From: Bacteroidota bacterium
GTDB lineage: Bacteria > Bacteroidota > Bacteroidia > UBA7662 > JAIXUI01
Direction: 5' to 3'
Length of the DNA: 38,851 nucleotides
NCBI GenBank assembly: GCA_027484125.1
Contig: JAIXUI010000099.1
Location: forward strand, 1-38,851
A model generated the notes under the pieces. The model saw only the letters and a program-made list of their open reading frames with translations. It had not been told where the DNA came from and searched no databases. Both the position numbers and the translations under genes were made by a program. Below are positions 3,533 to 22,716 of the stretch, one piece after another (positions within the stretch are counted from its first letter, which is position 1; each line of letters opens with the position of its first letter).

Positions 3533-3579
3533 GGTGTTCTTAGAATCATACCATTGAAATACAGGAAAGCTGCCGCCGC

Positions 3580-5370: not shown

Positions 5371-5400
5371 TATCAATTTTAAATTATTCATTATCAATTA
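5370..5400. repeat. ATTATCAATT direct repeat between hsdR and the S23 gene
   Basis: The core attatcaatt occurs twice within about 30 bases, spanning the stop codon of hsdR and the start of the S23 gene. It belongs with the repeats at 4970-5007 and 15309-15343. Confidence 0.6.
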
Positions 5401-8400
5401 CTTGTATTCCCTTTGCTGTTTAATCACTTCAAAAATGGGGTCTAACTTTTCGACTTTATTGTATTCCTCCAATACTGGTTTTACAACCTTATTTTTCAAA
5501 TGTTTTTCTTTGGAGAGTGTTCCTTCCCAATCATCGTGTTTGCCATAAATTACAGCACTATCCATTGCAATGGTACATTGCTCGTCACAGTCAAGGTTGT
5601 CATACAATGCCCGTTTGGCTTGCGTGTTTATGCTTGAAGGATATTCGTTGCTTGTTTCAGGCTTTTTGATTTTAACGGCAAGTTTTACAATCTCTTCCAG
5701 GTATTTTTCATAAGCTTCCGCTTCTTCATTGCGGAGTTTAATGAGTTCATCCAACAAAACACTCATTTTCTCATAATAAATGGGATTGGTAGGACTTTCC
5801 TCAATGATTACTTTCCTGAGATTGTTCTCAATGGTTTCTGCCATTGCCTCTTTGTTCTTCTTGATATTTTCAGGTAGTTTGTCTAAAGCTCCTTTTCCAT
5901 CTTTCACCAACAATTCCACTAAGCTAAAATCATCAAAAGCCGAAACTTTTTTACTTTCTTCTGCGGCAATGTAGCTATCAATCAAATGCCTCATTGCTGG
6001 TTCATATTGTTTTAAGTCCACCCAGTCGCCACTCGCTAATTGGATTTCCTTGCGAACATTTTCATAGTGTTTGATTTCCTCTTTAATCTTTTCAATTTGG
6101 GAAGGTTTGTAACCCGCTTCTTCCATTTCGTCAGCAATATTGGCATAAGCACGGATTAAGGAAATAACCGCTTTGTAAAGGGCTACTCGTTTGGGTTCGG
6201 TGTCTTTCAGGTCTTCTTTGATTTGTGGATTACCACAAAAGAAAGCGATGTATTGCTGGGTTCCTTTGGGTGGAGCCACCTCTTCACATAAAGCTCTAAT
6301 CGTTTCTAATGCATCATCTAAACGTTCTTTGCCTTTCGCCAAACGGTCGGAGAGAAGACCTTCCACATCTTTTTGGTCGTAATCTTCAAATGCTTTCGAA
6401 GTAAAATCTTTATAGGCATTTTCCAAACTTCCGAACAAATCTTTATAGTCAATAATGTAACCGTACTCTTTGTCGTCACCATCCAAACGATTTACACGGC
6501 AAATGGCTTGAAACAAGCCGTGGTCACGCATACTTTTGTCTATGTACAAGTAGGTGGCACTTGGTGCGTCAAAACCTGTGAGTAGCTTGTCCACCACAAT
6601 CAGCAGTTTCATTTGAGCCGGTTCGTCAATGAAACGTTTCTTTACTTCATCTTCAAAATCCTCCGGTGTCTTGCCGTTGAGCATTTTTTGGTAGATGTCG
6701 TATTGCATCAACTTTTCGGTATAGCCTTCGCCTTCTCCTTTGATGTCGCTGTGCGATGGGGTAAAGGATGTAACTATGGCACAACGAGTAAAGCCGGAAT
6801 CTAGAAACAACTGATAAAAGCGGCAAGCATTGTAAATGCTGTCCGAAACCAAAATAGCATTGCCTCTGCCGTTTTGCAAACGTTCACGGGTTTCCATATC
6901 CAACAGAATGTCGGCTACGATTTTTTGCAAACGGCCTACCGAACTGAACACCTTTTTCATGGTGCCCCATTTCTGTTTCAGTTCAGTTTTGGCAAAGTCC
7001 GTTAATCCTTTGGTTTTACTGTCGAACCAAGCATCTATTTTATCCAGTGAAGTTATTTTCTGCTCTATGTCACGGGCTTCATAACGCAAATCCAATACAA
7101 CTCCGTCTTTTACTGCTTCGTCAAATTTGTAGGTATGAATGTATTTGCCGAAAATCTCAATGCTCTTTTGCTTGTCGGCTTTCATCAATGGTGTTCCAGT
7201 GAAACCTATAAACAAGGCATCATCACCCAAGATTTTACGCATTGCTTTATTCAAATCTCCGCTTTGGCTTCGGTGACATTCATCTACAAACACATAAAAG
7301 TCGCCTTTGGGTTTGAAATCTTTGGGAAGACTATTGCGAAGTTCTTCTAAATAGCTGCTATAATCTTTTGATTTTTCTGCACCTTCCTCTTTGTTGCCGA
7401 ATTTGTGAATCAAGGAACACAACAACCAAGGGGTGGTAGCATTGAGTTTCTCAATTAAATCGGCTCCGCTTTTGGTGCGAAGGATTTGCTCATCAACGCC
7501 TTTGAATACTTTTTCAATCTGTTTGTCCAGTTCATCACGGTCGGTAATGATGAGCACTCGGGCATTGGGGTTGAACTCCCGAATCCATTTGGTAAGCCAC
7601 ACCATGGTCAGGCTTTTGCCGCTGCCTTGTGTGTGCCAAATGATGCCCCCTTCACGGTTGCGAATGCTTTCTTGTGCGGCTTTGATACCGAAATACTGAT
7701 TGGGGCGACAAAACTTCTTTTGCCCACGGTCAAACACCACAAAATCGTGCAGGATTTCAATGAGCCGTTCCTTGCCGAGCATTTCAATGATGTTCTTATC
7801 CAACAGATTTTCAGCTTGGGCAGCTTGTTCCCGAATGGGTTTGGTTAAATCCAACAGATAGGAGTCATTCGGATTAAATTCTTCATTTACCTCCTTCCAT
7901 TTCAGATAATACTTTTCAGGCGTGTCGATGGCTGCATAGCGCAAACCTTCAACATCTTGCCCCGCCATTACCAACTGAATGGTGGTGTAAAAAGGTTTAA
8001 TGAAAAGGTGTTTTTGGTTATCGTTGTTTTGGCGAATACCCTCAGAAACTGAAACCGTGCTTCGTTTCAATTCCAAAACACCTAAGGCTATACCATTGAC
8101 ATAAATAACAATATCAGGTCTTTTGTTATGCTGCCCTTTGATGGTGACTTCTTCGGCAATGGCAAAATCATTCTCCAGTGGATTTTTCCAATCAATCAGG
8201 TAAACCGTTTCTTTGTTTTGCCCGGCTTCTTCTTTTACATTAATGCCATACCGTAGTGCAGCATACACATTTTTGTTGGCCTGATACAAGTCGTCATTGG
8301 TGTTGATGGTGGCAATTTTCTTGAACTCAAACAACACTTTGCTAATCAAGTTTTGGCCGTGTCCTTTTTTGGTCAGGTAAGCCGTGAGCAAAGCTTCGTT

Positions 8401-8520
8401 GATATGGCTATTGTCTTCTTCCTTTTCCAGATTCCCCAAATAGGCGTATTTCAACACCTCCTGAAAAAGCTTGACTACACGATTTTGGGTTGCACGTTCT
8501 ATTTGACCTACTTTGCTCAT
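5398..8520 (-). CDS. hsdR: Type I restriction endonuclease, R subunit (HsdR)
   Basis: The 1040-residue motor and nuclease subunit starts at the ATG at 8520 (MSKVGQIERATQN), which forms an ATGA overlap with the preceding gene. The N-terminal PD-(D/E)xK nuclease shows RPDIVIYVNG and GVLELKRS (Asp136, Glu150, Lys152). The SF2 translocase follows: Walker A TQGSGKS (299-303), motif II DECH (413-416), motif III GFTGTPL, and motif VI QAICRVNRLDG. The C-terminal third is helical and should bind the HsdM/HsdS core. All catalytic motifs are intact, so ATP-driven translocation and cleavage are expected when partnered with HsdM and HsdS encoded upstream. An alternative ATG at 8547 would overlap the previous gene by 31 bases. 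Confidence 0.97.
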   Translation of the reverse strand: MSKVGQIERATQNRVVKLFQEVLKYAYLGNLEKEEDNSHINEALLTAYLTKKGHGQNLISKVLFEFKKIATINTNDDLYQANKNVYAALRYGINVKEEAGQNKETVYLIDWKNPLENDFAIAEEVTIKGQHNKRPDIVIYVNGIALGVLELKRSTVSVSEGIRQNNDNQKHLFIKPFYTTIQLVMAGQDVEGLRYAAIDTPEKYYLKWKEVNEEFNPNDSYLLDLTKPIREQAAQAENLLDKNIIEMLGKERLIEILHDFVVFDRGQKKFCRPNQYFGIKAAQESIRNREGGIIWHTQGSGKSLTMVWLTKWIREFNPNARVLIITDRDELDKQIEKVFKGVDEQILRTKSGADLIEKLNATTPWLLCSLIHKFGNKEEGAEKSKDYSSYLEELRNSLPKDFKPKGDFYVFVDECHRSQSGDLNKAMRKILGDDALFIGFTGTPLMKADKQKSIEIFGKYIHTYKFDEAVKDGVVLDLRYEARDIEQKITSLDKIDAWFDSKTKGLTDFAKTELKQKWGTMKKVFSSVGRLQKIVADILLDMETRERLQNGRGNAILVSDSIYNACRFYQLFLDSGFTRCAIVTSFTPSHSDIKGEGEGYTEKLMQYDIYQKMLNGKTPEDFEDEVKKRFIDEPAQMKLLIVVDKLLTGFDAPSATYLYIDKSMRDHGLFQAICRVNRLDGDDKEYGYIIDYKDLFGSLENAYKDFTSKAFEDYDQKDVEGLLSDRLAKGKERLDDALETIRALCEEVAPPKGTQQYIAFFCGNPQIKEDLKDTEPKRVALYKAVISLIRAYANIADEMEEAGYKPSQIEKIKEEIKHYENVRKEIQLASGDWVDLKQYEPAMRHLIDSYIAAEESKKVSAFDDFSLVELLVKDGKGALDKLPENIKKNKEAMAETIENNLRKVIIEESPTNPIYYEKMSVLLDELIKLRNEEAEAYEKYLEEIVKLAVKIKKPETSNEYPSSINTQAKRALYDNLDCDEQCTIAMDSAVIYGKHDDWEGTLSKEKHLKNKVVKPVLEEYNKVEKLDPIFEVIKQQREYK

Positions 8521-10985
8521 ACGGTTAATCCTTTTAATGACACGCATAAATCATTTATTTTTTTCAGCACTTCGCTTTCTTCTATGTAAATCACATACGA
8601 ATCATTTACAGCCGAATAACCATGATTTGTTAAAACAGCAACCAATTCATTACTGTAATTACCAATATCCCTGTAGAAAAAGCGCAACTTAAATTTATTC
8701 TGAGTGTAGGAGTATAAAATGTCTATTGCATATCTAGTGTTTTCAAATTGCCAATTATCAATATAAGCACAAGGGCGTTCTTCCCTGTCATCGCCTGCTG
8801 CGAAGTAGTAATTTGCTTTTGAATCAAAAGGAGCAAATTCTTTTCCTTCCAAATTATCAAGAAAAAATGAATACGAATACAATTCAGCATGAGCACCGCT
8901 CATTCGCTCACCGCTAAATAAGACAAATCCATGAGCGGAATTTTGTCTTACATATCGTTTCCCTCTTAAATAACTAAACAGCTTTGGAGTTAGAATAAAC
9001 CTGTGACGCCAGTCTGCACCTGTATAACTGTTTTTAATTGTTGCAAGAGATGATGTTAGATTGTTTGCATCAAGCTGATTAAAAATTTGTTTGATGATTT
9101 CTCTATGTAATTCGTGGTTTTTGTCTCCTTTCAAAAATCGCTTCCAGCTAATATCGCGGTCGAAATTGATTAAGAAACTTTGGTTACTGCCTTCTGTAAT
9201 TAAGTAATCGCCTTTTGCTAATAAGGCTCTTTCCCAAACAAAATCAGGGAAAAGATTTATTCCTTTATCACTGAATATCTCAATTGCAATATCCCTGTAT
9301 TTTATAAATTGTTCCTTGAAGTCAATATCTTCTTGTTCGCTCCAATCACAATGACTATTTGTGTTGAAATATTCTTCGATTCCGCTCAAAAATAGTATAA
9401 ATCCGATTTGGCCTTTAAAATATTCATGTTTTTCAACTGAATAAAGCAGTTCATCCCACTTGTTTGGTTTTAAGATTAAAAGGGATTTTATTTTTTCTTC
9501 TTTAAATTGTATTTCATCGAAACCGCTTATTTTATCCAGTGTTGAAATGTTTTTTAAAATGTTATTACTTTGCGGAATAATTAGGTTTATACCTTGAATG
9601 GAATTTGAATACTCCTTTTCATTGTTATAAGGTGCTGTATTCTCGGTTAAGTTGTAAATAACTCGCATCCAGTTTTGCAAACCTTCAATATCTTCAAAAC
9701 CCTTATCGGTTTTCCATTGAATTAAGTATTGACAATAGGCATGAAGTTTAATCCTTTCAACATAGCCAGCTTGAACAAAAGCATTGTTTACAACAATATC
9801 AAACTGTTCTGCTTCATTGTAATGAAAGAAGTCGGACAAATAACTCTTTACCTTTTGGTTTCCGTTCTTTATTAAATCTAGAATGGTTATTAGGTCAATT
9901 ACAGTCTTTTCATTTAAACATGCATTTTTTGAATACTGCTGAAACGAAATATCTTCGTTGCGTTTATCTATTAAATATTTGAGAAACTCTGCATTGCCAG
10001 AATTTGCAGCATAATTATTTACCACAACAGCCCTGATAAAATTCATTATCAGTTTGTCAAATTTCTTTTTGTCTGCCAGCGTGTGGTTCCAAAACAAGTT
10101 TGCCCAATCGGTGTCAATTTTATGGGAAAAATAAGTTTTGACATCAACCTGATTTGGTTTATCATCAAAGGTTAGTGTGTAAGTGTGTTTTGCATTAAAG
10201 TCGGATTTCTTTAAATGCTGTTCAAATTTTGCTTTAAAGTTTTCGTAAGGTGAAAGTGGAATGCCCCTTGCATTCATTTTTATGTACAAATCATCGGTAA
10301 GGTTAAATTCCTTCAAGTCAAGAAACTGGAAGGTTATTACTGGATTATCATGACTTATCAATCTTTGAAAGTAACCATGTGTATTTTTGAACTTAGCGTG
10401 AATATCATCGAGCATTATCAGCATAGACTGAATGGTTGGGTCGGTTTCCCACGATAGAAAATACCAACTGCTATCTTTGATGGTTTTTGATAAGCTGTTG
10501 TTTTCACCTTTATCGGGTTCTAAAAGCTTTTGCAAATCCATATCCGTTAATAACAACGAATCGCAAAATTCCCTTGAACTGGTGCGAGTTTCATACGAAA
10601 ACTTTGATTTTTGGCTTTCTCCCTGCTTGCTAAATACCAAATGCTTTCTGAGTTCATTAATCTCACCGTCTTTTATTGCCAAATACCAATGCAATAAAAA
10701 CAAGGTTGTTAAACGTTGCTGCCCGTCTAAAGGGATGAACTTTGTTTCTTCGTCAATGGCTTCATTTGACTGGTTTCCATATACAAAATCCAAATCCCTG
10801 TGCTTTTTATTCTCTTCAAGATATACCAATAGTGCATCTAAAAAAGAATCACGAATTTCGTGGGCTGTCATTCTTCCTTGAGCATAATCTCTTTGGATTA
10901 TTGGAATCTGGATATGATATTCCTGTATTAACTGAAAAAAAGTTAATCGTTTACTCGAAATATTTCCGTTACTATTCATTGTCAT
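8517..10985 (-). CDS. Large DUF262 (GmrS-like) protein without a visible HNH domain
   Basis: This 822-residue protein has the DUF262 N-terminal signature: IPIIQRDYAQGR (28-39) and PLDGQQRLTTLFLLHW (86-100), the ParB-like nucleotide-binding core of GmrS-type proteins. Further conserved pieces include LYIKMNARGIPLSPYENFKAK. No DUF1524 H-x-x-P/HNH nuclease motif was found; instead a C-terminal region of about 300 residues (around YLRGKRYVRQNSAHG to LFSGERMSGAHAE) is unfamiliar. The stop overlaps the hsdR start as ATGA, and the start overlaps the upstream DUF262-DUF1524 gene by 14 bases (8 if the second ATG is used). The context suggests a defence function: sensing or an NTP-dependent partner of the neighbouring nuclease. 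Confidence 0.85.
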   Translation of the reverse strand: MTMNSNGNISSKRLTFFQLIQEYHIQIPIIQRDYAQGRMTAHEIRDSFLDALLVYLEENKKHRDLDFVYGNQSNEAIDEETKFIPLDGQQRLTTLFLLHWYLAIKDGEINELRKHLVFSKQGESQKSKFSYETRTSSREFCDSLLLTDMDLQKLLEPDKGENNSLSKTIKDSSWYFLSWETDPTIQSMLIMLDDIHAKFKNTHGYFQRLISHDNPVITFQFLDLKEFNLTDDLYIKMNARGIPLSPYENFKAKFEQHLKKSDFNAKHTYTLTFDDKPNQVDVKTYFSHKIDTDWANLFWNHTLADKKKFDKLIMNFIRAVVVNNYAANSGNAEFLKYLIDKRNEDISFQQYSKNACLNEKTVIDLITILDLIKNGNQKVKSYLSDFFHYNEAEQFDIVVNNAFVQAGYVERIKLHAYCQYLIQWKTDKGFEDIEGLQNWMRVIYNLTENTAPYNNEKEYSNSIQGINLIIPQSNNILKNISTLDKISGFDEIQFKEEKIKSLLILKPNKWDELLYSVEKHEYFKGQIGFILFLSGIEEYFNTNSHCDWSEQEDIDFKEQFIKYRDIAIEIFSDKGINLFPDFVWERALLAKGDYLITEGSNQSFLINFDRDISWKRFLKGDKNHELHREIIKQIFNQLDANNLTSSLATIKNSYTGADWRHRFILTPKLFSYLRGKRYVRQNSAHGFVLFSGERMSGAHAELYSYSFFLDNLEGKEFAPFDSKANYYFAAGDDREERPCAYIDNWQFENTRYAIDILYSYTQNKFKLRFFYRDIGNYSNELVAVLTNHGYSAVNDSYVIYIEESEVLKKINDLCVSLKGLTV

Positions 10986-12831
10986 TGCTCACTTGTTTTT
11001 TGGGTAAATAATCAACGAGCGTTTCCTCTATAGATTTAAGGTAAAAATCGGCATCGTGTTTATTCCAATACATTACTTCATCAAACTTCTTGCTGTAGGC
11101 TTTCATAAAAACATTTTTTGTACAGATAGGAATAAACGTCCCCTGCTTATCGCTCTCCAAAATAATTTTACGTTTTATGGGGAAAAATGCGTTTTTATAA
11201 CTTCTATTGGTAGCTGAATCCAATAGGGCTAAATTTGATATGGCGCATTTGCTCGGCTCATTATCTTCCTTAGATTCAATTCTTATTTTATTGTAAACGG
11301 AGCTAAACCGAGCATCATCAATTTTATCGGCATAGGCAACGTGATACAAGTCTGACAATGTGTTTTTGCTTTGCTCTTTTTCGGAAATGGTTCTAAAAAC
11401 TTCAATGTTGTTATTTTCAACAGAATCGATATATTGTTTTTGTTCCGATTCGTCAGCAAAACCTGTAAAATATTCAAGCATATCTTTTGCCCATTCTTTG
11501 CGGTCGGTGCCTGTAATGTTTTTATCGGTTTGCGAACGCACATGCTCTATATCCCAATCTTCATTCTTGTATAGATTGAATGGAAATCGCATATTCGATT
11601 TTTCGTTGGAAAGTATGGTTTGAATGTTGAAAAGCAACAGAACGGTTTTAATTCTATCATCGCCATAATTCAGTTTGCTGATGTCGAATTTCACCTTTTG
11701 ACGGATTTCATCTTTCAAAAATGCTTTGAAACCTGTTTTTGATGTAATGCTGATGTTCACATTGTTCTTTTTCGGTTCAAGAATATCCTGTAACCTGTAG
11801 TTTATCGAAATTAAAAAGCCGATTAAATGATACAACTCCCTGTCTTTGTACCATTCTTCAAAGGTTAGGAAGTATTTTTTTACGCTTAACCAAAGGGTAT
11901 CGGTGTCGGGGATTTTGTATTTATTTTTGTTTTTGCTTGTTTCAAAATCTTCGTAAAACTTGTAAAAAGTGTATTTTTCATCTTCGCCTTCGGGTTTGTT
12001 TTTCATCAGGTCGAAAATGTATTCAATGCGATTGGCGTATTTGCGATTCTTCGATTCGGGCTTGTTGTAAACGAAATACCAAAATGAGTCGTCTTGCAAG
12101 GTGTTTTCAATCCTATCCCACTCGGTAGCAATTTGCAGTTGTTTCAACCTGAGCTTATCCACTGCTTCGACATTGTTCCATTTTTTTAGGAACAAGGCTT
12201 TTATCAGTTCTGCATTGGTTAATTGAATTTTGCCGATGTTTAAACGGGTGAAAATATCGTAGGAATCGGAACCATCCTTTATTACATACCAGATGACTTT
12301 TGTATCGGTTAGGAAAGTAGGGGCAAACTTCGCTTCAGGTGTTACATATTCATTTACTTCATCAGTTGCATTTGCTTTTTTGTCAAACCAATTTTGAATG
12401 GCCTTATTTGCCTGAGCGATATGGTAAAAATCGATATTCTTTTCAGCATCCTCTTCTTTTATTTCAGTTAAGAATTTTTCGCTTTCTTCCCTTGTTTCAT
12501 AAAAGACACGCTTAATATTCTTTTTTCTTATTTGCGATTCGAGGTTTTTCAATATCAAAAAAACGGTTGTAAGGCGTTGCTGACCGTCAATTACTTCCCA
12601 CTCATCGGCTATGCCGTTTTTCTGTTTTACTACAATGGGCTGCAGGCAATAAAAAGGACGCATTTTACCTTCTTCCAGTTTCGGCGGATTGATGGCAAAT
12701 CCCCAAATATCTTCCAATAGTTCTTCTACCTGCTTTTCTGTCCATCGATAGCCACGCTGGTATGATGGAATAAAAAAGCTGTAATCCATCAATTGGTTTA
12801 TCGATTTTAAAACTAATTCGTTCTCACTCAT
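10972..12831 (-). CDS. GmrSD-like DUF262-DUF1524 nuclease
   Basis: The 619-residue product combines both halves of a GmrSD-type enzyme. DUF262 at the N terminus shows IPSYQRGYRW (21-30) and IDGQQRLTTVF (81-91), with FTRLNIGKIQLTNAELIKA after it. The DUF1524 HNH part shows WDIEHVRSQ (His429) and ISNLALLDSATNRSYKNAFF with a following Lys-rich strand. GmrSD-family enzymes are NTP-dependent, often cut modified DNA, and relatives (SspE, BrxU) act in antiphage systems. The HxxP motif is HVRS here, so the Pro is replaced, though His and the Asn-containing second half remain. The start overlaps the hsdS stop as ATGA, so its synthesis is probably coupled to the specificity subunit. Confidence 0.92.
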   Translation of the reverse strand: MSENELVLKSINQLMDYSFFIPSYQRGYRWTEKQVEELLEDIWGFAINPPKLEEGKMRPFYCLQPIVVKQKNGIADEWEVIDGQQRLTTVFLILKNLESQIRKKNIKRVFYETREESEKFLTEIKEEDAEKNIDFYHIAQANKAIQNWFDKKANATDEVNEYVTPEAKFAPTFLTDTKVIWYVIKDGSDSYDIFTRLNIGKIQLTNAELIKALFLKKWNNVEAVDKLRLKQLQIATEWDRIENTLQDDSFWYFVYNKPESKNRKYANRIEYIFDLMKNKPEGEDEKYTFYKFYEDFETSKNKNKYKIPDTDTLWLSVKKYFLTFEEWYKDRELYHLIGFLISINYRLQDILEPKKNNVNISITSKTGFKAFLKDEIRQKVKFDISKLNYGDDRIKTVLLLFNIQTILSNEKSNMRFPFNLYKNEDWDIEHVRSQTDKNITGTDRKEWAKDMLEYFTGFADESEQKQYIDSVENNNIEVFRTISEKEQSKNTLSDLYHVAYADKIDDARFSSVYNKIRIESKEDNEPSKCAISNLALLDSATNRSYKNAFFPIKRKIILESDKQGTFIPICTKNVFMKAYSKKFDEVMYWNKHDADFYLKSIEETLVDYLPKKQVSNDNE

Positions 12832-13982
12832 ACCAACCTAATTTTCCCCGTTAATAAATTCTGCATCATCCCTAATTTCACTTTTTTGTATTTCTCTAGC
12901 TTAGCCTCCAATGCCGCTATCTCCGCATCCATATCGGATAAGATGGTGGCGATGCGGGTTTGTTCTTCTAATGAAGGTATTGAAATTTCAATCTGTTTGA
13001 TCTTGTTTGGACTAATCTCTAAGAAAGTACTTCCACTTGCATTTTGAATTAAAACGTTTTTTAGGGTTTGCATTAGGTAATATAAATACTCATTGTGATA
13101 ACCTTCTTTTGCAATTAGTGATTGAAATCCTTGATTGGTACATCCCTCACTCATAAGAATACTTAAATTCCCAATTCCGGCTCTGGTTGTAAGTAGTATC
13201 GTTCCGATAGGTAGCATTTTTCCAGAGCAATTTAGAAATCCTTCTTTTGTTATTTTACGAGTACTTTGAAACATGTACTTACTATCACCTATTTCTGTAG
13301 GTGTAAACCAATTGATTGTTCCATTCCAATAATTTGGTATGAAGCTACTTGGGGTTCCTCCTCCGACTACCTCACAAACATCCCCCAACTTCTTCACCTC
13401 CCAACCCTCTTTCGGTTGCAGCAGTTGTTGCATGGCCCCTTGCTTAATCATTCGCTTTTTGGCAATGAGTTTTTCTAAACTGCTGATCAAGGCATCGGCA
13501 TCGGATAGGGCGGTGGCTATGGCGGTTTGTTCGGCTTTGGTTGGGGGGATTGGAATTTGCATATCAGCAATCATATCCATCCTTACACTATCTACAGATG
13601 ATTTTGCTGTCATCTGCATTATTCGATTCAGAAAATTATTGCTGAAGTATAGATAGAAATAATAACCATTTATTCTCTCTGAAAAATTACTTATACGATA
13701 TACTCTTTGGTGGCAATCGAATTTGCCATTTATGTAGTGCATAACTTTACCAACGCCAACACCATCGCCAGCTGTGAGCACTGCTTCCCCATCAAATGAA
13801 TATGAATTTATTCTTTCTACAACTTGGGAACGAACAAAAAATGGATAAAGTCCACCTTCAACTCTGTCCTGAGTATTCTTACCCCCAGTTTTTATTTCAG
13901 CTAAGTTCTTAATGAAGTCTATATCCCAATCCTCAGGGATTGTTCCGATATCAGTTTGCTTGTATTCTAGCTTTTCTTTCAT
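12828..13982 (-). CDS. hsdS: Type I restriction specificity subunit (HsdS)
   Basis: The 384-residue subunit has two target-recognition halves. TRD1 begins IGTIPEDWDIDFIKNLAEIKTGG and ends in a conserved helical spacer (KAEQTAIATALSDADALISSL, about 152-190). TRD2 begins GWEVKKLGDVCEVVGGGTPS and ends in a second spacer (LEEQTRIATILSDMDAEIAAL to NLLTGKIRL). The repeated spacers set the gap of the bipartite target, and each half should read one half-site. The start overlaps the ORF6N gene stop as ATGA and the end overlaps the DUF262-DUF1524 gene as ATGA. No frame break, invertible partner or second hsdS copy is visible, so there is no sign of phase-variable TRD exchange. Confidence 0.97.
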   Translation of the reverse strand: MKEKLEYKQTDIGTIPEDWDIDFIKNLAEIKTGGKNTQDRVEGGLYPFFVRSQVVERINSYSFDGEAVLTAGDGVGVGKVMHYINGKFDCHQRVYRISNFSERINGYYFYLYFSNNFLNRIMQMTAKSSVDSVRMDMIADMQIPIPPTKAEQTAIATALSDADALISSLEKLIAKKRMIKQGAMQQLLQPKEGWEVKKLGDVCEVVGGGTPSSFIPNYWNGTINWFTPTEIGDSKYMFQSTRKITKEGFLNCSGKMLPIGTILLTTRAGIGNLSILMSEGCTNQGFQSLIAKEGYHNEYLYYLMQTLKNVLIQNASGSTFLEISPNKIKQIEISIPSLEEQTRIATILSDMDAEIAALEAKLEKYKKVKLGMMQNLLTGKIRLV

Positions 13983-14863
13983 TTCACAAGGTTTAATTTC
14001 GCCAATACATCGGCTGTGAGTGAATCCATTTTAGAAAAGGCAAACCATTTTTTGCCCAGGTCTTTGAGTGAAGCTCCCAAATGGTAAAGTTCTTTTTGGT
14101 CTATAATCAAAAAACGGTCGTGGCTGTGGGCAAAGGTTTTGAGGGCAATAGCCGGGTATTGGCTGTTGTGTTTGTCCACATCCAATTGCAGTTGCTTGCT
14201 GATGGTTTTGGTGTAAATGGTAGCGTTTACTTTGGGTGAGCGTTTGGCCAATACGGTCAGCACGGTTTCATCCACATAATTATCAATGAGAATAATTTCA
14301 TTTTTGGCTTTTTTGATGATGTCGGCTACAAATACATAGGCATCAAAAATTTGCCCTTCGAAGAAGATGCCGTGTTTGGGTTCTGGTTTACCTGCTTCTA
14401 AGGCTTTAAAAACTTGTTCTAGCTTTTCATCGGTTTTGAGTTGTTTTAATTCTACTTGGTTGAGTCGTTGAAAAATAGCTGCATTATGCTGTATAAATTG
14501 TCGCATAGCTACAAATGCTTGTATGATTTGGATGCTGGCAATCACCGCCCTTTCTGTGTTTAAAACAGCTGAAAGCATTGCCACACCTTGTTCCGTAAAT
14601 ACCCAAGGTAAATACTTTCGATGTTGACCTCTCCCTGCTTGATTGTTTAAGGTGCCAATTTGGAACCTTAGAGCTTCCCATTCTTCAGTATTCAATTGAA
14701 AAGCAAAAGCTTCCGGAAATCGCATTGGATTTCTTTTTACCGCTCTATTCACGAATTTGGTTTCCGTTTGGTACAGTAAAGCCAAATCATTGTCCAACAT
14801 CACTTGAACTCCTCTAACTAAGAAGATTTGATTTTGAATATTTTCTTGTTTCAATAGCTCCAT
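13979..14863 (-). CDS. ORF6N-domain protein with PLD-like C-terminal domain
   Basis: The N-terminal part of this 294-residue protein is an ORF6N domain (IFLVRGVQVMLDNDLALLYQ, then RFPEAFAFQLNTEEWEALRF and YLPWVFTEQGVAMLSAVL, about residues 10-105), a DNA-binding module common in phage antirepressors and in type I RM loci. The C-terminal part (about 165-290) looks like a divergent phospholipase D fold: FDAYVFVADIIKKAKNEIILI followed by SHDRFLIID and YHLGASLKDLGKKWFAFSKM. The HKD motif is present as H248-x-R-x4-D, with Arg instead of Lys, and only once. It may regulate the operon, bind DNA or act as an accessory nuclease. It sits between hsdM (59-base gap) and hsdS (ATGA overlap). Confidence 0.88.
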   Translation of the reverse strand: MELLKQENIQNQIFLVRGVQVMLDNDLALLYQTETKFVNRAVKRNPMRFPEAFAFQLNTEEWEALRFQIGTLNNQAGRGQHRKYLPWVFTEQGVAMLSAVLNTERAVIASIQIIQAFVAMRQFIQHNAAIFQRLNQVELKQLKTDEKLEQVFKALEAGKPEPKHGIFFEGQIFDAYVFVADIIKKAKNEIILIDNYVDETVLTVLAKRSPKVNATIYTKTISKQLQLDVDKHNSQYPAIALKTFAHSHDRFLIIDQKELYHLGASLKDLGKKWFAFSKMDSLTADVLAKLNLVK

Positions 14864-14922
14864 ATTCGATTCATATTGTGCAGTTTATAATGGAAAACCT
14901 TGTAAGTGCGTACTCATAGCGT

Positions 14923-17385
14923 TTACATGCTAAAGCCCATCATTTCCAAGTGCTTATTTACTCGCTCTTCCAACAGTTTTACCTCATTGGTTTGTTTAGG
15001 TAGCGGTGTTTCGTAGCGTTCTGCCAATTCTTTAATTCGTTGGGTGAGGCGTTGGCTAATGCGTTCCATTTCGGTTTTCACACTGCGTTCAATATTGGCC
15101 ATCCACTTGTCATCTACCACCAGTTGCTTAATCTCCTCTTCGGTGAGTGACTTGTATCGTTCAATCACCTTTTTGTCTAATTCGGTCTGGGCTTCCTTTA
15201 TCTTTTTATTGAGTTCCGTTTGGTTATCTAATAGCTTAAGGTATTGTTCAAAAACTTCAATTTTGGCTTTCAGTAAAACATATTCTTCACTGTTTTTACC
15301 GTGTTTTTTTAATTGTACATTGTCAATTTTCAATTGTCCATTGATACTGGCTTTGTTTACTTTGTCTAATTCTGCAAAATAGCCGTCTTCGGTGTTGTGT
15401 TCTTCCTCCAGTTCAGTCAACTGATTGGCAATGGCTTCTTTCTCCGCTTCCAGTTTTTCAATGGTTTGTTTTTCAGCAAGGAAATAGCGGTCAATCACCA
15501 GGTATTTTGGCACTAAATCACAATCCCACACGGTGGTTGATTTGGTTTGCTTGATGATACTCAATTCGGCTTTCCAGCCATCGGCAGAAATCTGATAGCA
15601 ATCGTCTTGCATGACCTCATTCCAATAATTCATCAAATGCTGATAGACATCGTATTTGTCCATCAGGGCTTTGCCTGTGTAGGTACTGAGCACATCTTCC
15701 GAAATGCGGTAAATAGTTTGCTTGGGTTTGATGCCTGTTTTGAGTGATTTCAGAAAAGCGGTGTTCTTGGTTTTCCAAGCTTCAAACACGGCATCCATTT
15801 CTTTGCTGAATTGCACAAACTCAGCGTGTGAGAATATTTCATTCTTTACTTGAGCCGGCTCTACCGTGAGTTGCGAATAGTTTTTGCGTCCGTCTTTAAA
15901 TAGTTGCTTCCTCAGAGAAGGATAAACTTTCCAGTATTCTTCCAGTGCATCAATGTCGGCATTAGGTATATCACCTAACAAATGGGCAGCAATGTCTTGA
16001 ATGTCTTCTGCTTCCTGGCTGTCAATGTATCGTGGAATGTTCAGGTTAAAATCATTCTTCGGGTCGCTGATTTCTTCCACACTTACTAATCTGCTGTATT
16101 TGGGCAGTTCAATTTGTTTGTTGAATACGTCCACAATTTTGTGAATGTCCTGTTCACGCAGTCGGTTTTTGTTCCCGTCTTTAATGAAGCCTTTGCTGGC
16201 ATCAATCATAAAGATGTGCTTGCGTTGATTAGCTCCTTCTTTATCTATTACAATGATACAGGCAGGAATACCCGTGCCATAAAACAAGTTGGCAGGTAGC
16301 CCGATAATGCCTTTAATGTAGCCGCGTAAAATCAAGCTCTTACGAATTTCTGCTTCGGCATTTCCACGGAACAATACTCCATGTGGTAAAATACAAGCTC
16401 CTTTTCCTGTGCTTTTCAGCGATTTGAGTATATGTAGCAAAAAAGCATAATCGCCATTTTTATCGGGTGGAGTTTTGTAGGTGGCTTTACCTGTTTTAGA
16501 ACTTACTTCTTCATCTCTTTCAAAACGGCCATAAAGGTCATTTTGTGGATCGAATCCGGTAGCCCAATTTTTAGAGGAAAAGGGCGGGTTTGCAACTATA
16601 AAGTCAAATGTTTTTAGATATCCGTTGCTGTCTTTGAAAAATGGATCGGAAAGGGTGCTCTGCCCACGGTGAATTTCAATGGCTTCTTGTCCATGTAATA
16701 TCATATTCATACGCGTAAGAGCGGCGGTGGCCACATCTTTTTCCTGTCCGTAAATGGTTCCTTTACCATCGGCTTCGTCCAAGGCTTTGAGCAGCAGGGA
16801 GCCAGATCCGCAGGTGGGGTCGTAAAAAGTGGTGCGGTTTGTAGCGTCTTGAATGTTGAGCACTTTCGCCATCACACGACTTACTTCGCTGGGGGTGTAG
16901 AATTGTCCTTTGCTCTTTCCACTTTCGGTAGCAAAGTTTTTCATCAGGTACTCAAAGGCATCTCCCAGAATATCATCACCACCAGCACGATTTTTAGAAA
17001 AGTCAAGAGCCGGATTTTCAAAAATGGCAATTAGGTTGCTCAACCTGTCCACCATTTCCTTGCCTTTGCCCAGCTTGTCATCATCAGCAAAGTCAGCTAC
17101 ATCAATCACCCCTTTTAGGTCGTTGGCTTTTGCCAGCTCACCAATAATGATGTTGATTTGGTTGCCAATGTCCTTGTTGCCCTTCAAGGCTTGCATATCC
17201 TTGAAACTTCCTCCTTCGGGAATTTCAATAATGGCATCGGGGTCATTGGCGTATTTATCGCTTACATACTTTACAAACAACAACACAAGAATATAGTCCT
17301 TGTATTGGCTTGGATCCATTCCGCCTCTCAGTTCGTCACAACTTGCCCAAAGTGAGCTATATAACTCAGATTTTTTGATTGCCAT
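14923..17385 (-). CDS. hsdM: Type I DNA adenine methyltransferase (HsdM), long form
   Basis: The 820-residue protein starts MAIKKSELYSSLWASCDELR with the usual HsdM N-terminal helical domain. Motif QFYTP (161-165) precedes the SAM site FYDPTCGSGS (motif I, 189-195), and the catalytic motif IV reads ANPPF (266-269), the gamma-class N6-adenine signature. Motif and order are intact, so it should methylate adenine with HsdS. Many HsdM proteins are near 500 residues; this one has an extra region of about 300 residues with strong coiled-coil character (KLEAEKEAIANQLTELEEE; QTELNKKIKEAQTELDKK). A repeat-derived piece (SINGQLKIDNVQLKKHGK) lies near residues 680-692. It is the first gene of the operon; no gene precedes it for more than a kilobase. 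Confidence 0.96.
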   Translation of the reverse strand: MAIKKSELYSSLWASCDELRGGMDPSQYKDYILVLLFVKYVSDKYANDPDAIIEIPEGGSFKDMQALKGNKDIGNQINIIIGELAKANDLKGVIDVADFADDDKLGKGKEMVDRLSNLIAIFENPALDFSKNRAGGDDILGDAFEYLMKNFATESGKSKGQFYTPSEVSRVMAKVLNIQDATNRTTFYDPTCGSGSLLLKALDEADGKGTIYGQEKDVATAALTRMNMILHGQEAIEIHRGQSTLSDPFFKDSNGYLKTFDFIVANPPFSSKNWATGFDPQNDLYGRFERDEEVSSKTGKATYKTPPDKNGDYAFLLHILKSLKSTGKGACILPHGVLFRGNAEAEIRKSLILRGYIKGIIGLPANLFYGTGIPACIIVIDKEGANQRKHIFMIDASKGFIKDGNKNRLREQDIHKIVDVFNKQIELPKYSRLVSVEEISDPKNDFNLNIPRYIDSQEAEDIQDIAAHLLGDIPNADIDALEEYWKVYPSLRKQLFKDGRKNYSQLTVEPAQVKNEIFSHAEFVQFSKEMDAVFEAWKTKNTAFLKSLKTGIKPKQTIYRISEDVLSTYTGKALMDKYDVYQHLMNYWNEVMQDDCYQISADGWKAELSIIKQTKSTTVWDCDLVPKYLVIDRYFLAEKQTIEKLEAEKEAIANQLTELEEEHNTEDGYFAELDKVNKASINGQLKIDNVQLKKHGKNSEEYVLLKAKIEVFEQYLKLLDNQTELNKKIKEAQTELDKKVIERYKSLTEEEIKQLVVDDKWMANIERSVKTEMERISQRLTQRIKELAERYETPLPKQTNEVKLLEERVNKHLEMMGFSM
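15309..15343. repeat. AATTGTACATTGTCAATT-type repeat inside hsdM
   Basis: The stretch holds aattgtacattgtcaatttt followed by an inverted-looking caattgtccattg. It is translated in frame as INGQLKIDNVQL in the C-terminal extension of HsdM. Its motif (ATTG-N-CAATT) matches the repeats at 4970-5007 and 5370-5400. Confidence 0.55.
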
Positions 17386-18070: not shown

Positions 18071-18222
18071 GGTTTTCTCTCAATGGTTTCGCGCCTACGT
18101 AGCTGCTATAAAATGGGTGGTGTTTTTCTATTGACCTATTGCCCCGGTGGTGGCTATGGAGACGATAGTTCGATTCAAGCGCGGTTCCATATCTCCTTGC
18201 ATGGTTTAATCTCGGGAGTGTA
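18071..18222 (+). repeat. Intergenic palindromic repeat, copy A (degenerate)
   Basis: The segment aligns with 21701-21865 in the same orientation. The best 60 bases (18091-18150 against 21721-21780) match at about 48 positions without a gap and include an identical tgtttttcta; a second block begins at cgattcaagcgc (18171) against cgactcaagcgc (21814). Copy A is the more decayed one: its palindromes (GCCCCGG..; CCTACGTAG) are imperfect. Confidence 0.6.
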
Positions 18223-18573: not shown

Positions 18574-19083
18574 TTAGTGTTGTTTCCATTTCTCAATTCT
18601 TGCTTCATATTCTTTTTTAGGAAAACTTAGCTTGGCGTTAATGGTAGTTAGTTCATTAAGTTTAATTATGGCGGTTTCGGGGGTGATGCACTTATGCTCG
18701 ATTAGTGCATCAAACACCCATAAATGACCGTGCACTTCCACTTTTTGTGTTTTGGCAAATTTTCTCAGTGCATTATCTGAGGTTATTAATGAGGCTTTTA
18801 ATTTAAGAGCACAATGTAAGGCAGAGCAATCTTTGTCTGAGAGTTGCGGCTTTTGGGCTTGAAGGCTCATAATATTAAGCATGTCATCTACACCTAATTC
18901 TTGAATGATGAGTTTTCCGTTTTCAATATACGGTTGAAGTTGTTGTTTCTGCTCGTCATACAATTCGTTTTCAATAATGAGATTAGTAGAATGAAATTCC
19001 CAATCGATATTAAAAAAGGCATCTACTAAATCAAGTTTTATCAAGTCTATTAAAATATTGACATCATTTACAACTGCAATCAT
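18574..19083 (-). CDS. PIN-domain protein (probable RNase toxin or effector)
   Basis: The 169-residue protein has the PIN-fold pattern: an N-terminal strand with Asp7 (MIAVVNDVNILIDLIKL), a middle acidic segment (LIIENELYDEQ), and LSDKDCSALHCALKLKASLITSDNALRKFA carrying the later acidic residues. These residues normally bind Mg/Mn for RNA cleavage. It belongs near the DUF3368-type branch, judged by eye. Its ATG overlaps the stop of the XRE-ImmA/IrrE gene (19080-19083), so the two are made together. The arrangement fits predicted toxin-antitoxin pairs in which an XRE-metalloprotease protein controls a PIN toxin; cleavage target unknown. Confidence 0.85.
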   Translation of the reverse strand: MIAVVNDVNILIDLIKLDLVDAFFNIDWEFHSTNLIIENELYDEQKQQLQPYIENGKLIIQELGVDDMLNIMSLQAQKPQLSDKDCSALHCALKLKASLITSDNALRKFAKTQKVEVHGHLWVFDALIEHKCITPETAIIKLNELTTINAKLSFPKKEYEARIEKWKQH

Positions 19084-20138
19084 ATTGCCATAAATTCATC
19101 ACGGAATTGTGCCAGATTTACATTAGACAAACTTGCGGCTTTACTCATAGAAATTATTTCTTCAGCAGTTGCTCTATAAAGCAATTGCTTAAATCGTGAT
19201 GAATGTTCAATGCCTTTATATTCACCAAAACCAATCTCTTTTTTATGCTTTTCATCCTTATTGACCCAAATTCTAAATCTAATATATTGGTCGTTGGTGA
19301 TGATTCCCAAATCTTTGGCACGAGCCATAATGGCTTGAATAGAGATACCGTAAGATTCTTTGATACTGATAAGTTCGTTTATTGAAACAGAGCTTCTTTT
19401 ATGACCTAATTCTTTTAACAAGGTCTCTCTGGGTAAAAGCATGGCTCCTGCAAATTGATGGCAGAATTTTTCTATTTCTTGATGAGTGAACTTTTCGGGA
19501 TTGATATTGAGCAATAAATGCCCTAATTCATGCAAGGCGGTAAAACGTTTACGCTCTACGGTAAAGTTTTTATTGATTACAATGACTGGTATAGTTTGAT
19601 TTGCCCAACCAGAAAGACCATCAAATTTTTCATCTGCATCAATTTCTACTACTTTAACATCGTTGTCTTCTAAGATTTCAATGACATTAGGTAAAGCATT
19701 GATGCCTAAATCCCATTTTGCCAGAAGTTGACTTACTGCCTTTTCAATATCATCGGCATGTTCAATCACAACATTTTTAACTGGGTTCACAAATCCATTT
19801 TGAACGTTAAGGAAGGTCTCCAATTCAATGTAACGTTCTATATTATCTTTTATATTCTCTTTGATAGAATTGGTTTTCTTAACGGTAAGGTTGCTCTTTT
19901 TTCTGAATTCAATGTTGCTAATTTCTACGGCTTGAGGTCTTAAGAAGTAGTCAGTTTTAACATCTAAGGTATGTGAAAGAGCAATGAGTACTTTACTGTC
20001 AGGCATCATTTCACCTTTTTCGTATTTGCTGATCGCATTGTGACTCACCATTCCTGCTAAAGCATCAGAAAGTTCACGTTGCGAGAATCCCGCTAACAAC
20101 CTGGCTGATTTTATTCTGTTTCCTATTTGTTCTTTCAT
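19080..20138 (-). CDS. XRE-family regulator fused to ImmA/IrrE zinc peptidase
   Basis: Residues about 5-65 of this 352-residue protein form a helix-turn-helix (GNRIKSARLLAGFSQRELSD, SHNAISKYEKGEMMPDSKVL). The C-terminal part is an ImmA/IrrE (COG2856) peptidase with ALHELGHLLL, where His203, Glu204 and His207 make the HExxH zinc site, followed by EKFCHQFAGAMLLPRETLLKEL, which supplies the conserved region after it. Proteins of this plan repress their own operon and may cleave a repressor or partner on a stress signal. It is coupled by an ATGA overlap to the PIN gene. An 11-bp inverted repeat directly upstream is a strong candidate operator for its own HTH. Confidence 0.93.
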   Translation of the reverse strand: MKEQIGNRIKSARLLAGFSQRELSDALAGMVSHNAISKYEKGEMMPDSKVLIALSHTLDVKTDYFLRPQAVEISNIEFRKKSNLTVKKTNSIKENIKDNIERYIELETFLNVQNGFVNPVKNVVIEHADDIEKAVSQLLAKWDLGINALPNVIEILEDNDVKVVEIDADEKFDGLSGWANQTIPVIVINKNFTVERKRFTALHELGHLLLNINPEKFTHQEIEKFCHQFAGAMLLPRETLLKELGHKRSSVSINELISIKESYGISIQAIMARAKDLGIITNDQYIRFRIWVNKDEKHKKEIGFGEYKGIEHSSRFKQLLYRATAEEIISMSKAASLSNVNLAQFRDEFMAI

Positions 20139-20615: not shown

Positions 20616-21038
20616 TCACTTGTCAATTAGAGAAAGTGTTAGTTTGTCTGGTTGGCCATGAAAAAATTTGTCTAATATTTTCTGGAATAAGCGGTCGTTG
20701 GATTGGTCAACAATAGAAAACAGCGTCATGCATGACTTTAATTTGAGGTCATCCGGAGAACCAAAAATTTTATGGGCATTATTTTCCTCAATTTCTAACA
20801 AGGTGAATGTGATTTGCTTGAGTCGAGCGCCGAGTATGGGGTGGTCTAAATAGTTTTTGGCTTCTTCCAAGTTGTTGATGGCATAGTGCTTAGACATTTT
20901 ACTAAACCCCAATCCTTTTAGTTGAGGGAAGATGTACCACATCCAATGTCCATTTTTTTGCCTAGCTTGAATTTCATGAAGTGCTTGATCAAAAGACCTT
21001 TCTTGTGCCTCGAGAAATCTGTTTAAGTCGTTTTTCAT
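20616..21038 (-). CDS. DUF1810-family protein
   Basis: The 140-residue protein shows the DUF1810 pattern: LNRFLEAQERSFDQALHEI at the start, NGHWMWYIFPQLKGLGFSKM, then the DHPILGARLKQIT block and FGSPDDLKLKSCMTLF. Length equals that of the family. Its biochemical role is not firmly established to my knowledge, although the domain is often linked to NAD/ADP-ribose biology. It is monocistronic by spacing (101 bases to the HsdM relic). It is probably cytoplasmic, with no signal peptide. Confidence 0.92.
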   Translation of the reverse strand: MKNDLNRFLEAQERSFDQALHEIQARQKNGHWMWYIFPQLKGLGFSKMSKHYAINNLEEAKNYLDHPILGARLKQITFTLLEIEENNAHKIFGSPDDLKLKSCMTLFSIVDQSNDRLFQKILDKFFHGQPDKLTLSLIDK

Positions 21039-21225: not shown

Positions 21226-21450
21226 TTAAAGTTTAGTCCATTGGTGGTGGCTTCCGGCGGTGCAATACAATACGCTGGGGGTATTTTTTGATTGAACCAA
21301 CAGGGCGCATTTTTTACATTGGTAGTGGTTGGTGCCTACATCGCCAAGGTTGTTCCATTGGTGATGGCCGCCGCTTGGGCAATTCAAAACGGTTGGGATA
21401 GAGGCGCTTTTAAGATGCGTTTTGCATTTTTTGCATTGAAAGTTTTTCAT
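21226..21450 (-). CDS. Small protein with two zinc-ribbon-like repeats
   Basis: From the ATG at 21450 (MKNFQCKKCKTHLKSAS) this is a 74-residue protein built of two similar units. Unit 1 is FQCKKC...PTVLNCPSGGHHQW and unit 2 is YQCKKC...PSVLYCTAGSHHQW. Each holds C-x2-C, a later Cys and an HH pair, so each could bind one metal ion. The internal repetition and conserved Cys/His positions argue strongly for a real gene, although no clear ribosome-binding site precedes it. I do not know a function. Small proteins with the same CPSGGxHxW ending occur in other bacteria, from memory. It stands alone between the DUF1810 gene and repeat-rich DNA. Confidence 0.75.
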   Translation of the reverse strand: MKNFQCKKCKTHLKSASIPTVLNCPSGGHHQWNNLGDVGTNHYQCKKCALLVQSKNTPSVLYCTAGSHHQWTKL

Positions 21451-21690
21451 GTGGTGGGTTGTTTGAAGCAATACTCGCAAGGCATCCCGCCAAATGGCGT
21501 CGTTGTAATTATTTCGATGCAGAAGTTTTAGGAAGTTAGACGGGGACGGTTTTATAAACCTAGCGCCCCGCTGGGGTTAGATCATAATTGGTATAAATTC
21601 ATGCGGCATGTTGGCCAAACGGCAGCAGGGCGGGATGTGTTCCATACGTAATTTACAATTCGTAAAAAAGAGTCAACCTTGTAGCCCTTC

Positions 21691-21865
21691 CCGTAGGAGC
21701 GTTACCTTTTACCCTGTGTCGCTCCTACGGAGCTGCTAAAAAATGAGGCCTGTTTTTCTATTAACCTATCGCCCCTCCGGGGCTGAGGATTGGTGGCTTT
21801 GGTTAGGCTAGCTCGACTCAAGCGCTGTTGAACATCCTCTTTCACGGTTCAAACTCCGCAGTCAG
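21691..21865 (+). repeat. Intergenic palindromic repeat, copy B (well preserved)
   Basis: It starts with a perfect 10-base inverted repeat CCGTAGGAGC (21691-21700) / GCTCCTACGG (21721-21730) and contains a second hairpin GCCCCTCCGGGGC (21771-21783). This REP-like arrangement resembles palindromic elements common between Bacteroidota genes. Copy A lies at 18071-18222 in the same orientation. Confidence 0.65.
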
Positions 21866-21870
21866 TTTTC

Positions 21871-21996
21871 TCAATATTGGACACTCGCACTTTAACATTG
21901 TGTTCTCCCATCTCAATATTCCGTTACCTCACTTCAATATTCCACTCACTGTCCTCAATATTGGACACTTACACTTCAATATTCTGTTTTCTCTTC
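21871..21996 (+). repeat. Strict 21-bp tandem array with TCAATATT core
   Basis: Six consecutive units of exactly 21 bases begin at 21871, 21892, 21913, 21934, 21955 and 21976, with a partial seventh (TCAATA) at 21997. Five start with TCAATATT and one with TTAACATT; the other 13 bases vary. Units 1 and 5 match at 19 of 21 positions, so there is also a higher-order period of 84 bases. Read on the plus strand in frame with 21870 the array gives a heptapeptide repeat with alternating LNI and FNI, inside a 61-codon open frame with only a TTG start (21828-22013). Coding status is unclear. Confidence 0.8.
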
Positions 21997-22248
21997 TCAA
22001 TAGGGGGAGCTGATTTCATTATCGTCAGCTCTTCATCTTACTGAGGTTGTTTCGCTTCTTTAGAGGCTATTGCGGTTTGGTCTCTTGCTTATTGGTGGGT
22101 TTTATTTACGCTAGACCTTGGTGATTGGGGGTGTTGGGCGTTTGGTCGATCACGATGGTGGTCACAGCTTAGATGGGTGGATTCCCCTGTGGTTGGGTTG
22201 TGGGCATCCACCCATCTTGGTTACTGGCTGAGGAGAGCTGGGAGTTGC

Positions 22249-22716
22249 TTAATGCTTCACGCGTTCCCAAACTTCGGTCCTGCCAAACATCGAAATGCCT
22301 AAATAGCCGCGTATCTGGAGCTTTTCGCCTTCAAAGGAGAGTTTGCAGCGGTAGGTCTTTCCGTTGTTAGGGTCATATACGCGCCCGTTCACCCATTGTT
22401 GGTCTTCGTATTCCAGGTCTCGCATCAGCACCATCCCCAGTATGGGCTGTTTCCGTAGTTTGGGGTCTTCGTTTTTGATGTCGAGCTTCGGACTTCCATC
22501 CGGATGATGGGTGTCTTTGCCCCAAATCAGTTTTCCAAAATAGCGGTTGCCTTGTTTGTAGATTTCTATCTTTCCGTCTTTCTGGGCGGTGAGGTAAACG
22601 CCTAGGATCCGGTCTGCTTGGTTTTGTGCGCTTAGGCTAAGGCTGGTTAGGAATAGTCCTGCCGCCATCACCCAGGTTAGCTTTCTTGATAGAAGGGTTG
22701 TTCGAACTTTTGTCAT
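22249..22716 (-). CDS. DUF2147-family exported protein
   Basis: The 155-residue protein has an N-terminal signal peptide (hydrophobic stretch LTWVMAAGLFLTSLSLSAQ). The mature part matches DUF2147: ILGVYLTAQKDGKIEIYKQG, YFGKLIWGK, GMVLMRDLEYEDQQWVNGRV, YDPNNGKTYRCKL and LQIRGYLGISMFGRTEVWER. The fold is a small beta-barrel, and the protein is probably periplasmic or surface-linked; the function is unknown. It follows the RND gene on the same strand with 69 bases between, so read-through from the efflux operon is possible. Confidence 0.92.
   Translation of the reverse strand: MTKVRTTLLSRKLTWVMAAGLFLTSLSLSAQNQADRILGVYLTAQKDGKIEIYKQGNRYFGKLIWGKDTHHPDGSPKLDIKNEDPKLRKQPILGMVLMRDLEYEDQQWVNGRVYDPNNGKTYRCKLSFEGEKLQIRGYLGISMFGRTEVWERVKH

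What the first reader, a model, noticed from the sequence alone, without database searches (positions are those of the whole stretch)
21871..21996. Exact 21-bp array with a conserved TCAATATT core
Six units with no length drift keep an 8-base core while the other 13 bases vary. Spacing of 21 is two helical turns, so cores face one side of the DNA, as in a protein-binding array. It also equals seven codons, giving alternating LNI/FNI heptapeptides. Either reading would explain why the period stayed exact. Units 1-2 and 5-6 are closer to each other, which shows growth by block duplication.
Basis: seen in the sequence. Interest (0 to 1): 0.55.

Follow-up and report, generated by a model that had tools for sequence, protein, structure and literature searches.

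The report
Dispersed 21-base intergenic repeat arrays
The six repeats are a short copy of what looks like a non-coding tandem repeat that sits at several places in this bacterium's genome, one of about eight repeat families found there whose units are all exactly 21 bases long, which is unusual but so far has no shown function.

Summary
The array is real: six in-register 21-bp units (21871-21996) plus a 6-base partial unit; the core is exact in five of six. It is not unique: the same family lies at two or three other loci of this 3.33-Mb genome, each running off a contig end. The window units are collinear with the 3' end of the two longer arrays (unit identity 0.81 with C118, 0.79 with C8), so the window copy is a terminal block, not a local 1-2/5-6 duplication. 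It is probably non-coding: no frame is open in all three readable copies and synonymous and codon-position tests show nothing significant. It belongs to a wider population: in 865 kb of contigs not chosen for arrays, 21 bp was the commonest basic unit outside evident genes (eight arrays, one flagged coding by my rule). I name eight unit families; A and B look related, A and E may be. Many form 42- or 63-bp dimers or trimers. Such arrays recur in other Bacteroidia, but AATATT is not special there (17 of 395 genomes; reversed control 14 of 395). Best reading: a dispersed higher-order minisatellite, like Porphyromonas BrickBuilt in kind. Why 21 is kept (helical phase, 3x7 origin, founding accident) is unsolved.

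The parts
21868..22002 (+). Tandem array: six full 21-bp units (21871-21996) with TCAATATT core plus a partial seventh unit (TCAATA, 21997-22002)
21871..21975 (+). Five unit types in the same order as the 3' end of the C118 array; four of the five (units 2-5) also match the 3' end of the C8 array
   Evidence: alignment; offset scan (0.81 at the last six positions of C118, next best 0.68; 0.79 at the last six of C8, next best 0.75; the sixth position of C118 and C8 is the last core plus flank)
21657..21849 (+). 5' flank homologous to the 5' flank of the C120 array (82 bp at 77% and 92 bp at 75%)
21716..21790 (+). Dispersed palindromic intergenic repeat (CGCTCCTACGGAGC ... CGCCCCTCCGGGGC), also at window 18086 and on contigs C120, C151, C156; not tied to arrays
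21828..22013 (+). 61-aa open frame over the array (TTG start, LNI/FNI heptapeptides); judged not a gene
22249..22716 (-). Flanking gene, DUF2147 protein (the array lies downstream of it)
20616..21038 (-). Flanking gene with a Pfam match on the other side, DUF1810 protein (the array lies upstream of it)

Best explanation
A non-coding, dispersed minisatellite. Shown: units of 21 bp of several types (alternating in 42-bp dimers in the long copies), the same terminal block at three loci, positions between genes, register kept. Inferred: the array was copied between loci as a block by recombination, with some neighbouring intergenic DNA in at least one case (C112 and C120), and the long copies then grew by unequal exchange or slippage in 42-bp steps, the conserved core fixing the register of pairing. 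No cellular function is needed to explain it; it is one member of a population of 21-bp arrays in this genome.
For: Same family at the end of C8, the start of C118 and the start of C120. Window units collinear with the 3' ends of C118 and C8. Lag 42 beats lag 21 in C8 and C118. Of 13 21-bp arrays listed, 5 touch a contig end and 7 lie within 150 bp of one, as expected of repeats too long or too often repeated for the assembler. Frame, codon-position and Pfam tests give no support for coding in this family. Homologous 5' flank at C112 and C120. Eight further 21-bp arrays of other unit types in 865 kb of contigs not chosen for arrays, outside evident genes, of which my open-frame rule flags C28 as coding; TRF finds arrays at the same eight places and the rule then flags C28 and C128.
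Against: Neutral decay should spread changes evenly, but the core is conserved in clustered columns (p 0.0002 to 0.0022). 168 units in 12 arrays carry 500 substitutions from their unit consensus without a shift of register, more length constancy than drift suggests, though units are not independent and I laid them out in fixed steps of 21. A block at the start of C17 has family-B-like pieces in a 56-bp period, out of 21-bp register. No shared 3' flank and no transposase or target-site duplication seen by eye.
Confidence: 0.6

Rival explanations
1. Phased protein-binding or DNA-shape array: a nucleoid or regulatory protein reads one core every two helical turns, and selection keeps the 21-bp spacing.
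For: Exact 21-bp spacing in the copies of this family; AATATT palindromic core conserved and clustered in all three arrays; in another family (C24) a different 8-base core, GAATACAA, is also clustered (p 0.008), and weakly in C28 (p 0.035); a 37/38-bp family in the same genome does mix unit lengths.
Against: Cores differ between families and clustering is absent in C43, C131, C44, C60 and in C1, C139, C128. No 10-11-bp sub-period in this family: lag 10 ranks 9th of 10 in all three arrays; over all 30 arrays lag 10 ranks first in three (C44, one of G376, one of G284), about what chance gives. Arrays sit in varied contexts.
Confidence: 0.17
2. Coding: the arrays encode heptapeptide-repeat proteins and 21 bp is seven codons.
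For: Open frames cover several arrays; in family B the reverse frame (NIEVGRS) has no stops and a synonymous excess in both arrays (21 of 53, expected 13.8, p 0.02; 19 of 46, expected 10.9, reached by at most one of 300 simulations). For the window family the C8 array alone is near the line (17 of 64, expected 11.8, p 0.06).
Against: For the window family no frame is open in all three copies; synonymous changes in the LNI frame are 5 of 22, 17 of 64 and 10 of 50 against 4.6, 11.8 and 8.6 expected. The codon-position test is not significant in any of 10 arrays (p 0.11 to 0.88). None of seven array frames reaches a curated Pfam cut-off. With 72 frame tests a few low p values are expected and the two family-B arrays are related.
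Confidence: 0.08
3. Derived from a heptanucleotide repeat: 21 = 3 x 7, with 42 and 63 as 6 x 7 and 9 x 7; the 21-bp unit is a higher-order trimer of an old (TTCAATA)n-like repeat. This is an account of origin and may hold together with the best explanation.
For: Lag 7 is the strongest sub-period in the three arrays of this family and the two of family E, second in the two of B. A scan of species genomes with a relaxed three-core pattern gave 33 loci, 28 of them 7-bp-based TTCAATA/TTCAACA-type arrays by my reading, and in four of these 21 beats 7 (L209, L211, L217, L230). Six 7-bp-based arrays occur in three of 20 genomes not chosen for arrays.
Against: Families C, D, F, G, H show no lag-7 excess (ranks 7-10), and of 18 arrays from other genomes one has lag 7 first; three of eight families at rank 1-2 is within chance by my arithmetic. 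The scan pattern itself lets 7-bp arrays match. Three of the 33 loci (L215, L226, L240) are 21-bp arrays without strong 7-bp structure and two are weak.
Confidence: 0.25
4. A MITE-like mobile element of the BrickBuilt kind: leader, tandem repeats, tail, moved by a transposase in trans.
For: Multi-copy, intergenic, same terminal block at three loci; shared 5' flank at C112 and C120, and part of that flank also before the family-E array of C28 (116 bp at 76% with C120); a partial copy of the flank without an array at window 18086-18219.
Against: No shared 3' flank among C112, C8 and C118; I saw no terminal inverted repeats or duplicated target bases by eye but made no dedicated search. The flank blocks also occur without a detected array: C151, C156 and window 18086 and C102, C115, C75, C149. 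No match in the phage and plasmid collections.
Confidence: 0.1

Closest known systems
BrickBuilt minisatellite/MITE of Porphyromonas gingivalis (PMC4596501; passages read)
   Same: Bacteroidota; 23-nt tandem units without spacers, dispersed (19 places in one strain), always intergenic, variable copy number, flanked by homologous sequence
   Different: Unit 21 not 23 nt; several unit families per genome; alternating unit types; no shared tail found here
Heptanucleotide repeats (intergenic TAACTGA repeats in Beggiatoaceae, Cyanobacteria and five Bacteroidetes, and the long simple sequence repeats cited there; PMC4679880, passages read)
   Same: Intergenic direct repeats, present in Bacteroidetes; 21 is a multiple of 7
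   Different: Here the unit is 21 bp with diverged thirds; a 7-bp residue is weak and seen in only some families
Intergenic tandem repeats noted in lake Planctomycetota (PMC9426551; passages read)
   Same: Intergenic tandem repeats linked to length variants
   Different: Other phylum; unit length not given in the passages read
Iteron arrays of plasmid and phage origins (recalled, from no call)
   Same: Direct repeats of about 20-22 bp on one face of the helix
   Different: Here at several loci of one assembly, no replication gene recognised beside the window array, no plasmid or phage match

Membership tests
BrickBuilt-type MITE minisatellite | Tandem units of fixed length at several intergenic loci | tested here: met
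BrickBuilt-type MITE minisatellite | Unit of 23 nt | tested here: not met
   unit is 21 bp; the BrickBuilt sequence itself was not compared
BrickBuilt-type MITE minisatellite | Shared leader and tail with small inverted-repeat ends | tested here: inconclusive
   5' flank shared by C112 and C120, no shared 3' flank among C112, C8, C118; the 5' ends of C8 and C118 lie beyond the contig ends; inverted ends looked for by eye only
Protein-coding heptapeptide repeat | One frame open in all copies | tested here: not met
   window family, three copies
Protein-coding heptapeptide repeat | Excess of synonymous or third-position change | tested here: inconclusive
   no significant excess in the window family (C8 alone p 0.06); family B reverse frame does show one
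Heptanucleotide repeat | Dominant 7-bp period | tested here: not met
   match at lag 7/14 is 0.35-0.39 against 0.57-0.63 at lag 21 in the three arrays
Phased protein-binding array | A protein binds each core | not testable with these tools
   needs a pulldown or footprint
Known structured RNA family | Match to an Rfam model at its gathering score | tested here: not met
   no match in the window; folding alone: window array z -2.4 (4 of 200 shuffles as good), C118 array z -1.5

The most novel reading that the evidence does not exclude
Several Bacteroidia lineages carry populations of intergenic arrays in which the spacing of 21 bp, two helical turns, is the conserved property while the repeated sequence is free to differ from family to family: a spacing-defined DNA element, for instance one that sets DNA shape or nucleoid packing rather than a sequence code.
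Probability: 0.13. Interest if true: 0.7.

Novelty: new variant of a known kind. Interest (0 to 1): 0.37.

Why it matters
If 21 bp is truly selected across unrelated repeat families, these arrays would be natural test pieces for how spacing alone, apart from sequence, matters to a bacterial chromosome. Short of that, they help explain why this genome breaks into many contigs and why heptapeptide open frames without known relatives appear over such arrays.

Tried and rejected
Coding reading: not supported for this family. Structured RNA: no Rfam match in the window; mild folding of the window array (z -2.4, 4 of 200 shuffles as good), less for C118 (z -1.5). Promoter and terminator scan of 21500-22260: 2 promoter-like sites against 0.9 (sd 0.9) in shuffles, both inside the array, and 2 terminator-like against 1.0 (sd 1.0); not followed up. 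Phage or plasmid origin: no blastn match of 21560-22050 at E 0.01 and no viral-contig match of the relaxed pattern. Relatives: none of the 20 other genomes of the order has a four-core array at up to one mismatch; in a 60-genome set 5 of 59 others have one two-core match each. AATATT as the special part: rejected, since the reversed control pattern hits 14 of 395 class genomes (my count from the table) against 17 of 395 for the pattern, own genome included. Relation between families: A and B look related (16 of 21, shuffle p 0.0015 before correction for 91 pairs; 13 to 15 of 21 among 217 pairs); A and E possibly (13 of 21 on the other strand; 14 of 21 in the same orientation, p 0.004 uncorrected); G and H match nothing above 12 of 21. 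Heptamer origin: only a lead. Rows not used: the family-B row of the clustering test pooled two arrays out of phase (redone apart); the ninth C44 unit lies outside that array (totals redone); the shuffle count printed (195) is inflated by three all-N contigs. Literature: eight of ten searches used; no listed paper was about 21-bp arrays in Bacteroidota by its title or the abstract start shown; this is no proof of absence.

Full report
What is there. Window 21871-21996 holds six units of exactly 21 bp and a partial seventh to 22002. Five of six cores are TCAATATT, unit 2 has TTAACATT. It is more than chance: 13 pattern matches in the window, nine of them in the array, against 1.06 expected and at most 4 in 100 shuffles. 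The array lies in a gene-poor stretch between a DUF1810 gene (20616-21038, minus) and a DUF2147 gene (22249-22716, minus), near the edge of a low-G+C region that holds restriction-modification genes.

The same family elsewhere in the genome. The window is contig C112 of a 3.33-Mb, 167-contig assembly. The family recurs at the end of C8, at the start of C118 and at the start of C120 (sequences). C8 and C118 show long stretches of alternating units, mainly TTAAATATT-GGACACTCAAGT and TTAAATATT-CCGTTCTCTGTC, so that 42 bp matches better than 21; their inner ends carry TCAATATT units. Their 5' ends run off the contigs, and C120 shows only a 5' border of about 60 bases, so it may be the missing end of one of them; the number of loci is three or four.

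Collinearity. Sliding the six window units along the C118 array, the best place is the last six positions (0.81 identity; next best 0.68), the sixth being the terminal core plus flank; along C8 also the last six (0.79; next best 0.75) (alignment). All five unit types 1-5 keep their order in C118; in C8 units 2-5 do. Within the window array units match each other at 0.61 on average. The window copy is thus a terminal block shared by three loci, and the likeness of units 1 and 5 is older than it. The 5' flanks of C112 and C120 are homologous over two stretches of 82 and 92 bp at 77% and 75%; part of the C120 flank (116 bp, 76%) also stands before the array of another family on C28. These flank blocks are dispersed intergenic repeats that also occur where no array was detected. 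The 3' flanks of C112, C8 and C118 share nothing that blastn reports at E 0.1.

Coding or not. In the three readable copies no frame is open throughout: the LNI frame has 0, 0 and 2 stops (C112, C8, C118), the Q/KYW frame 1, 0 and 0, the third 0, 8 and 14. Variation is not significantly concentrated in one codon position in any of ten arrays (p 0.11 to 0.88). Synonymous changes in the LNI frame are 5 of 22, 17 of 64 and 10 of 50, against 4.6, 11.8 and 8.6 expected, the C8 value at p 0.06. None of seven array frames reaches a Pfam cut-off. One result points the other way: in family B (C43 and C131) the reverse frame has no stops and more synonymous changes than expected (21 of 53 against 13.8; 19 of 46 against 10.9). 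With 72 frame tests and related arrays I do not count it as proof.

A population of 21-bp arrays. A period scan of 865,400 bases from 76 contigs or contig starts not chosen for arrays (three of them all N) found nine arrays with basic period 21. One lies in a long open frame with coiled-coil-like repeats (C57, by eye); eight do not lie in evident genes, though the open-frame rule flags C28 as coding and, on TRF's limits, C28 and C128. The next commonest basic unit lengths outside genes were 24 (four arrays, two of one family) and 37/38 (three, one family, mixing both lengths). With the chosen contigs there are 13 such arrays, which I group in eight families, A to H. A and B look related, A and E may be; G and H match no other family above 12 of 21. 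In 12 arrays, 168 units carry 500 substitutions from their unit consensus and the register holds from end to end; units were laid out in steps of 21 and are not independent. Against this, family-B-like pieces at the start of C17 stand in a 56-bp period within other repeats. Seven of the 13 arrays lie within 150 bp of a contig end, so lengths and numbers are probably underestimates.

Beyond this genome. Among 21 genomes of the order only this one has a four-core array. Among 395 genomes of the class 17 have one, but 14 have a match to the reversed control pattern, so what recurs is 21-bp arrays in general, not AATATT. In 20 stretches from 12 class genomes, most chosen because they held a match, further 21-bp arrays of other sequence lay in G376 and G284. 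In 335 kb of first contigs from 20 genomes not chosen for arrays I found no 21-bp array of this kind: there were 7-bp-based arrays (six, in three genomes), one 42-bp array without a 21-bp sub-period, a short 21-bp repeat inside an open frame, and other lengths including 8, 9, 22 and 46. The class is thus patchy. A scan of species genomes with a relaxed three-core pattern gave 33 loci, 28 of them 7-bp-based by my reading, with three 21-bp arrays lacking strong 7-bp structure, two of them in one Mariniphaga genome.

How it most likely works. A founding 21-bp duplication grew into unit types and alternating dimers; the conserved core fixes the register in which copies pair during slippage or unequal exchange; a terminal block was copied between loci by recombination. 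The first two steps are inferred from anatomy; the third rests on the collinearity shown, its mechanism is inferred. The clustered core (p 0.0002 to 0.0022 in the three arrays) and the constant 21 are the two facts this account explains least well. Helical phasing would explain both, but cores differ between families or are not clustered, no 10-11-bp sub-period is seen in this family, and no protein is known.

Closest known. BrickBuilt of Porphyromonas gingivalis is the nearest described thing that I found (passages of PMC4596501); the heptanucleotide repeats of PMC4679880 (passages) are the nearest by arithmetic. Neither is met in full. I rate this a new variant of a known kind, of moderate interest.

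Noticed in passing
G000 C43 18652-19084 (L074 6653-7085): A 20-unit 21-bp array of another family lies between a gene that looks like a lipoyl-domain acyltransferase (by eye) and a cas9-like gene (L074 7398-11066, Pfam RuvC_III and HNH_4).
   Followed up: partly
window 5398-17385: Type I restriction-modification genes (HsdM at 14923-17385 by Pfam; HsdR and HsdS by eye) with a GmrSD_N protein and an ORF6N protein among them, in a low-G+C stretch.
   Followed up: no
window 18574-20138: HTH plus IrrE-like peptidase protein next to a 169-aa protein without Pfam match, toxin-antitoxin-like by eye.
   Followed up: no
window 2666-3760: Protein with Fic and Bro-N domains.
   Followed up: no
window 21226-21480: 84-aa ORF with two zinc-ribbon-like copies (weak Pfam matches below cut-off), seen also as a DNA repeat at 117-bp distance.
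   Followed up: no
window 18086-18219: Second partial copy of the 5' flank of the array, without an array.
   Followed up: yes
L089 8440-8724 and L102 607-960 (G000 C13, C26): 37/38-bp arrays of one family that differ in unit length, a contrast to the 21-bp arrays.
   Followed up: partly
window 21889-21920: Both promoter-like consensus sites found in 21500-22260 lie inside the array, one on each strand; the number is close to that in shuffles.
   Followed up: no
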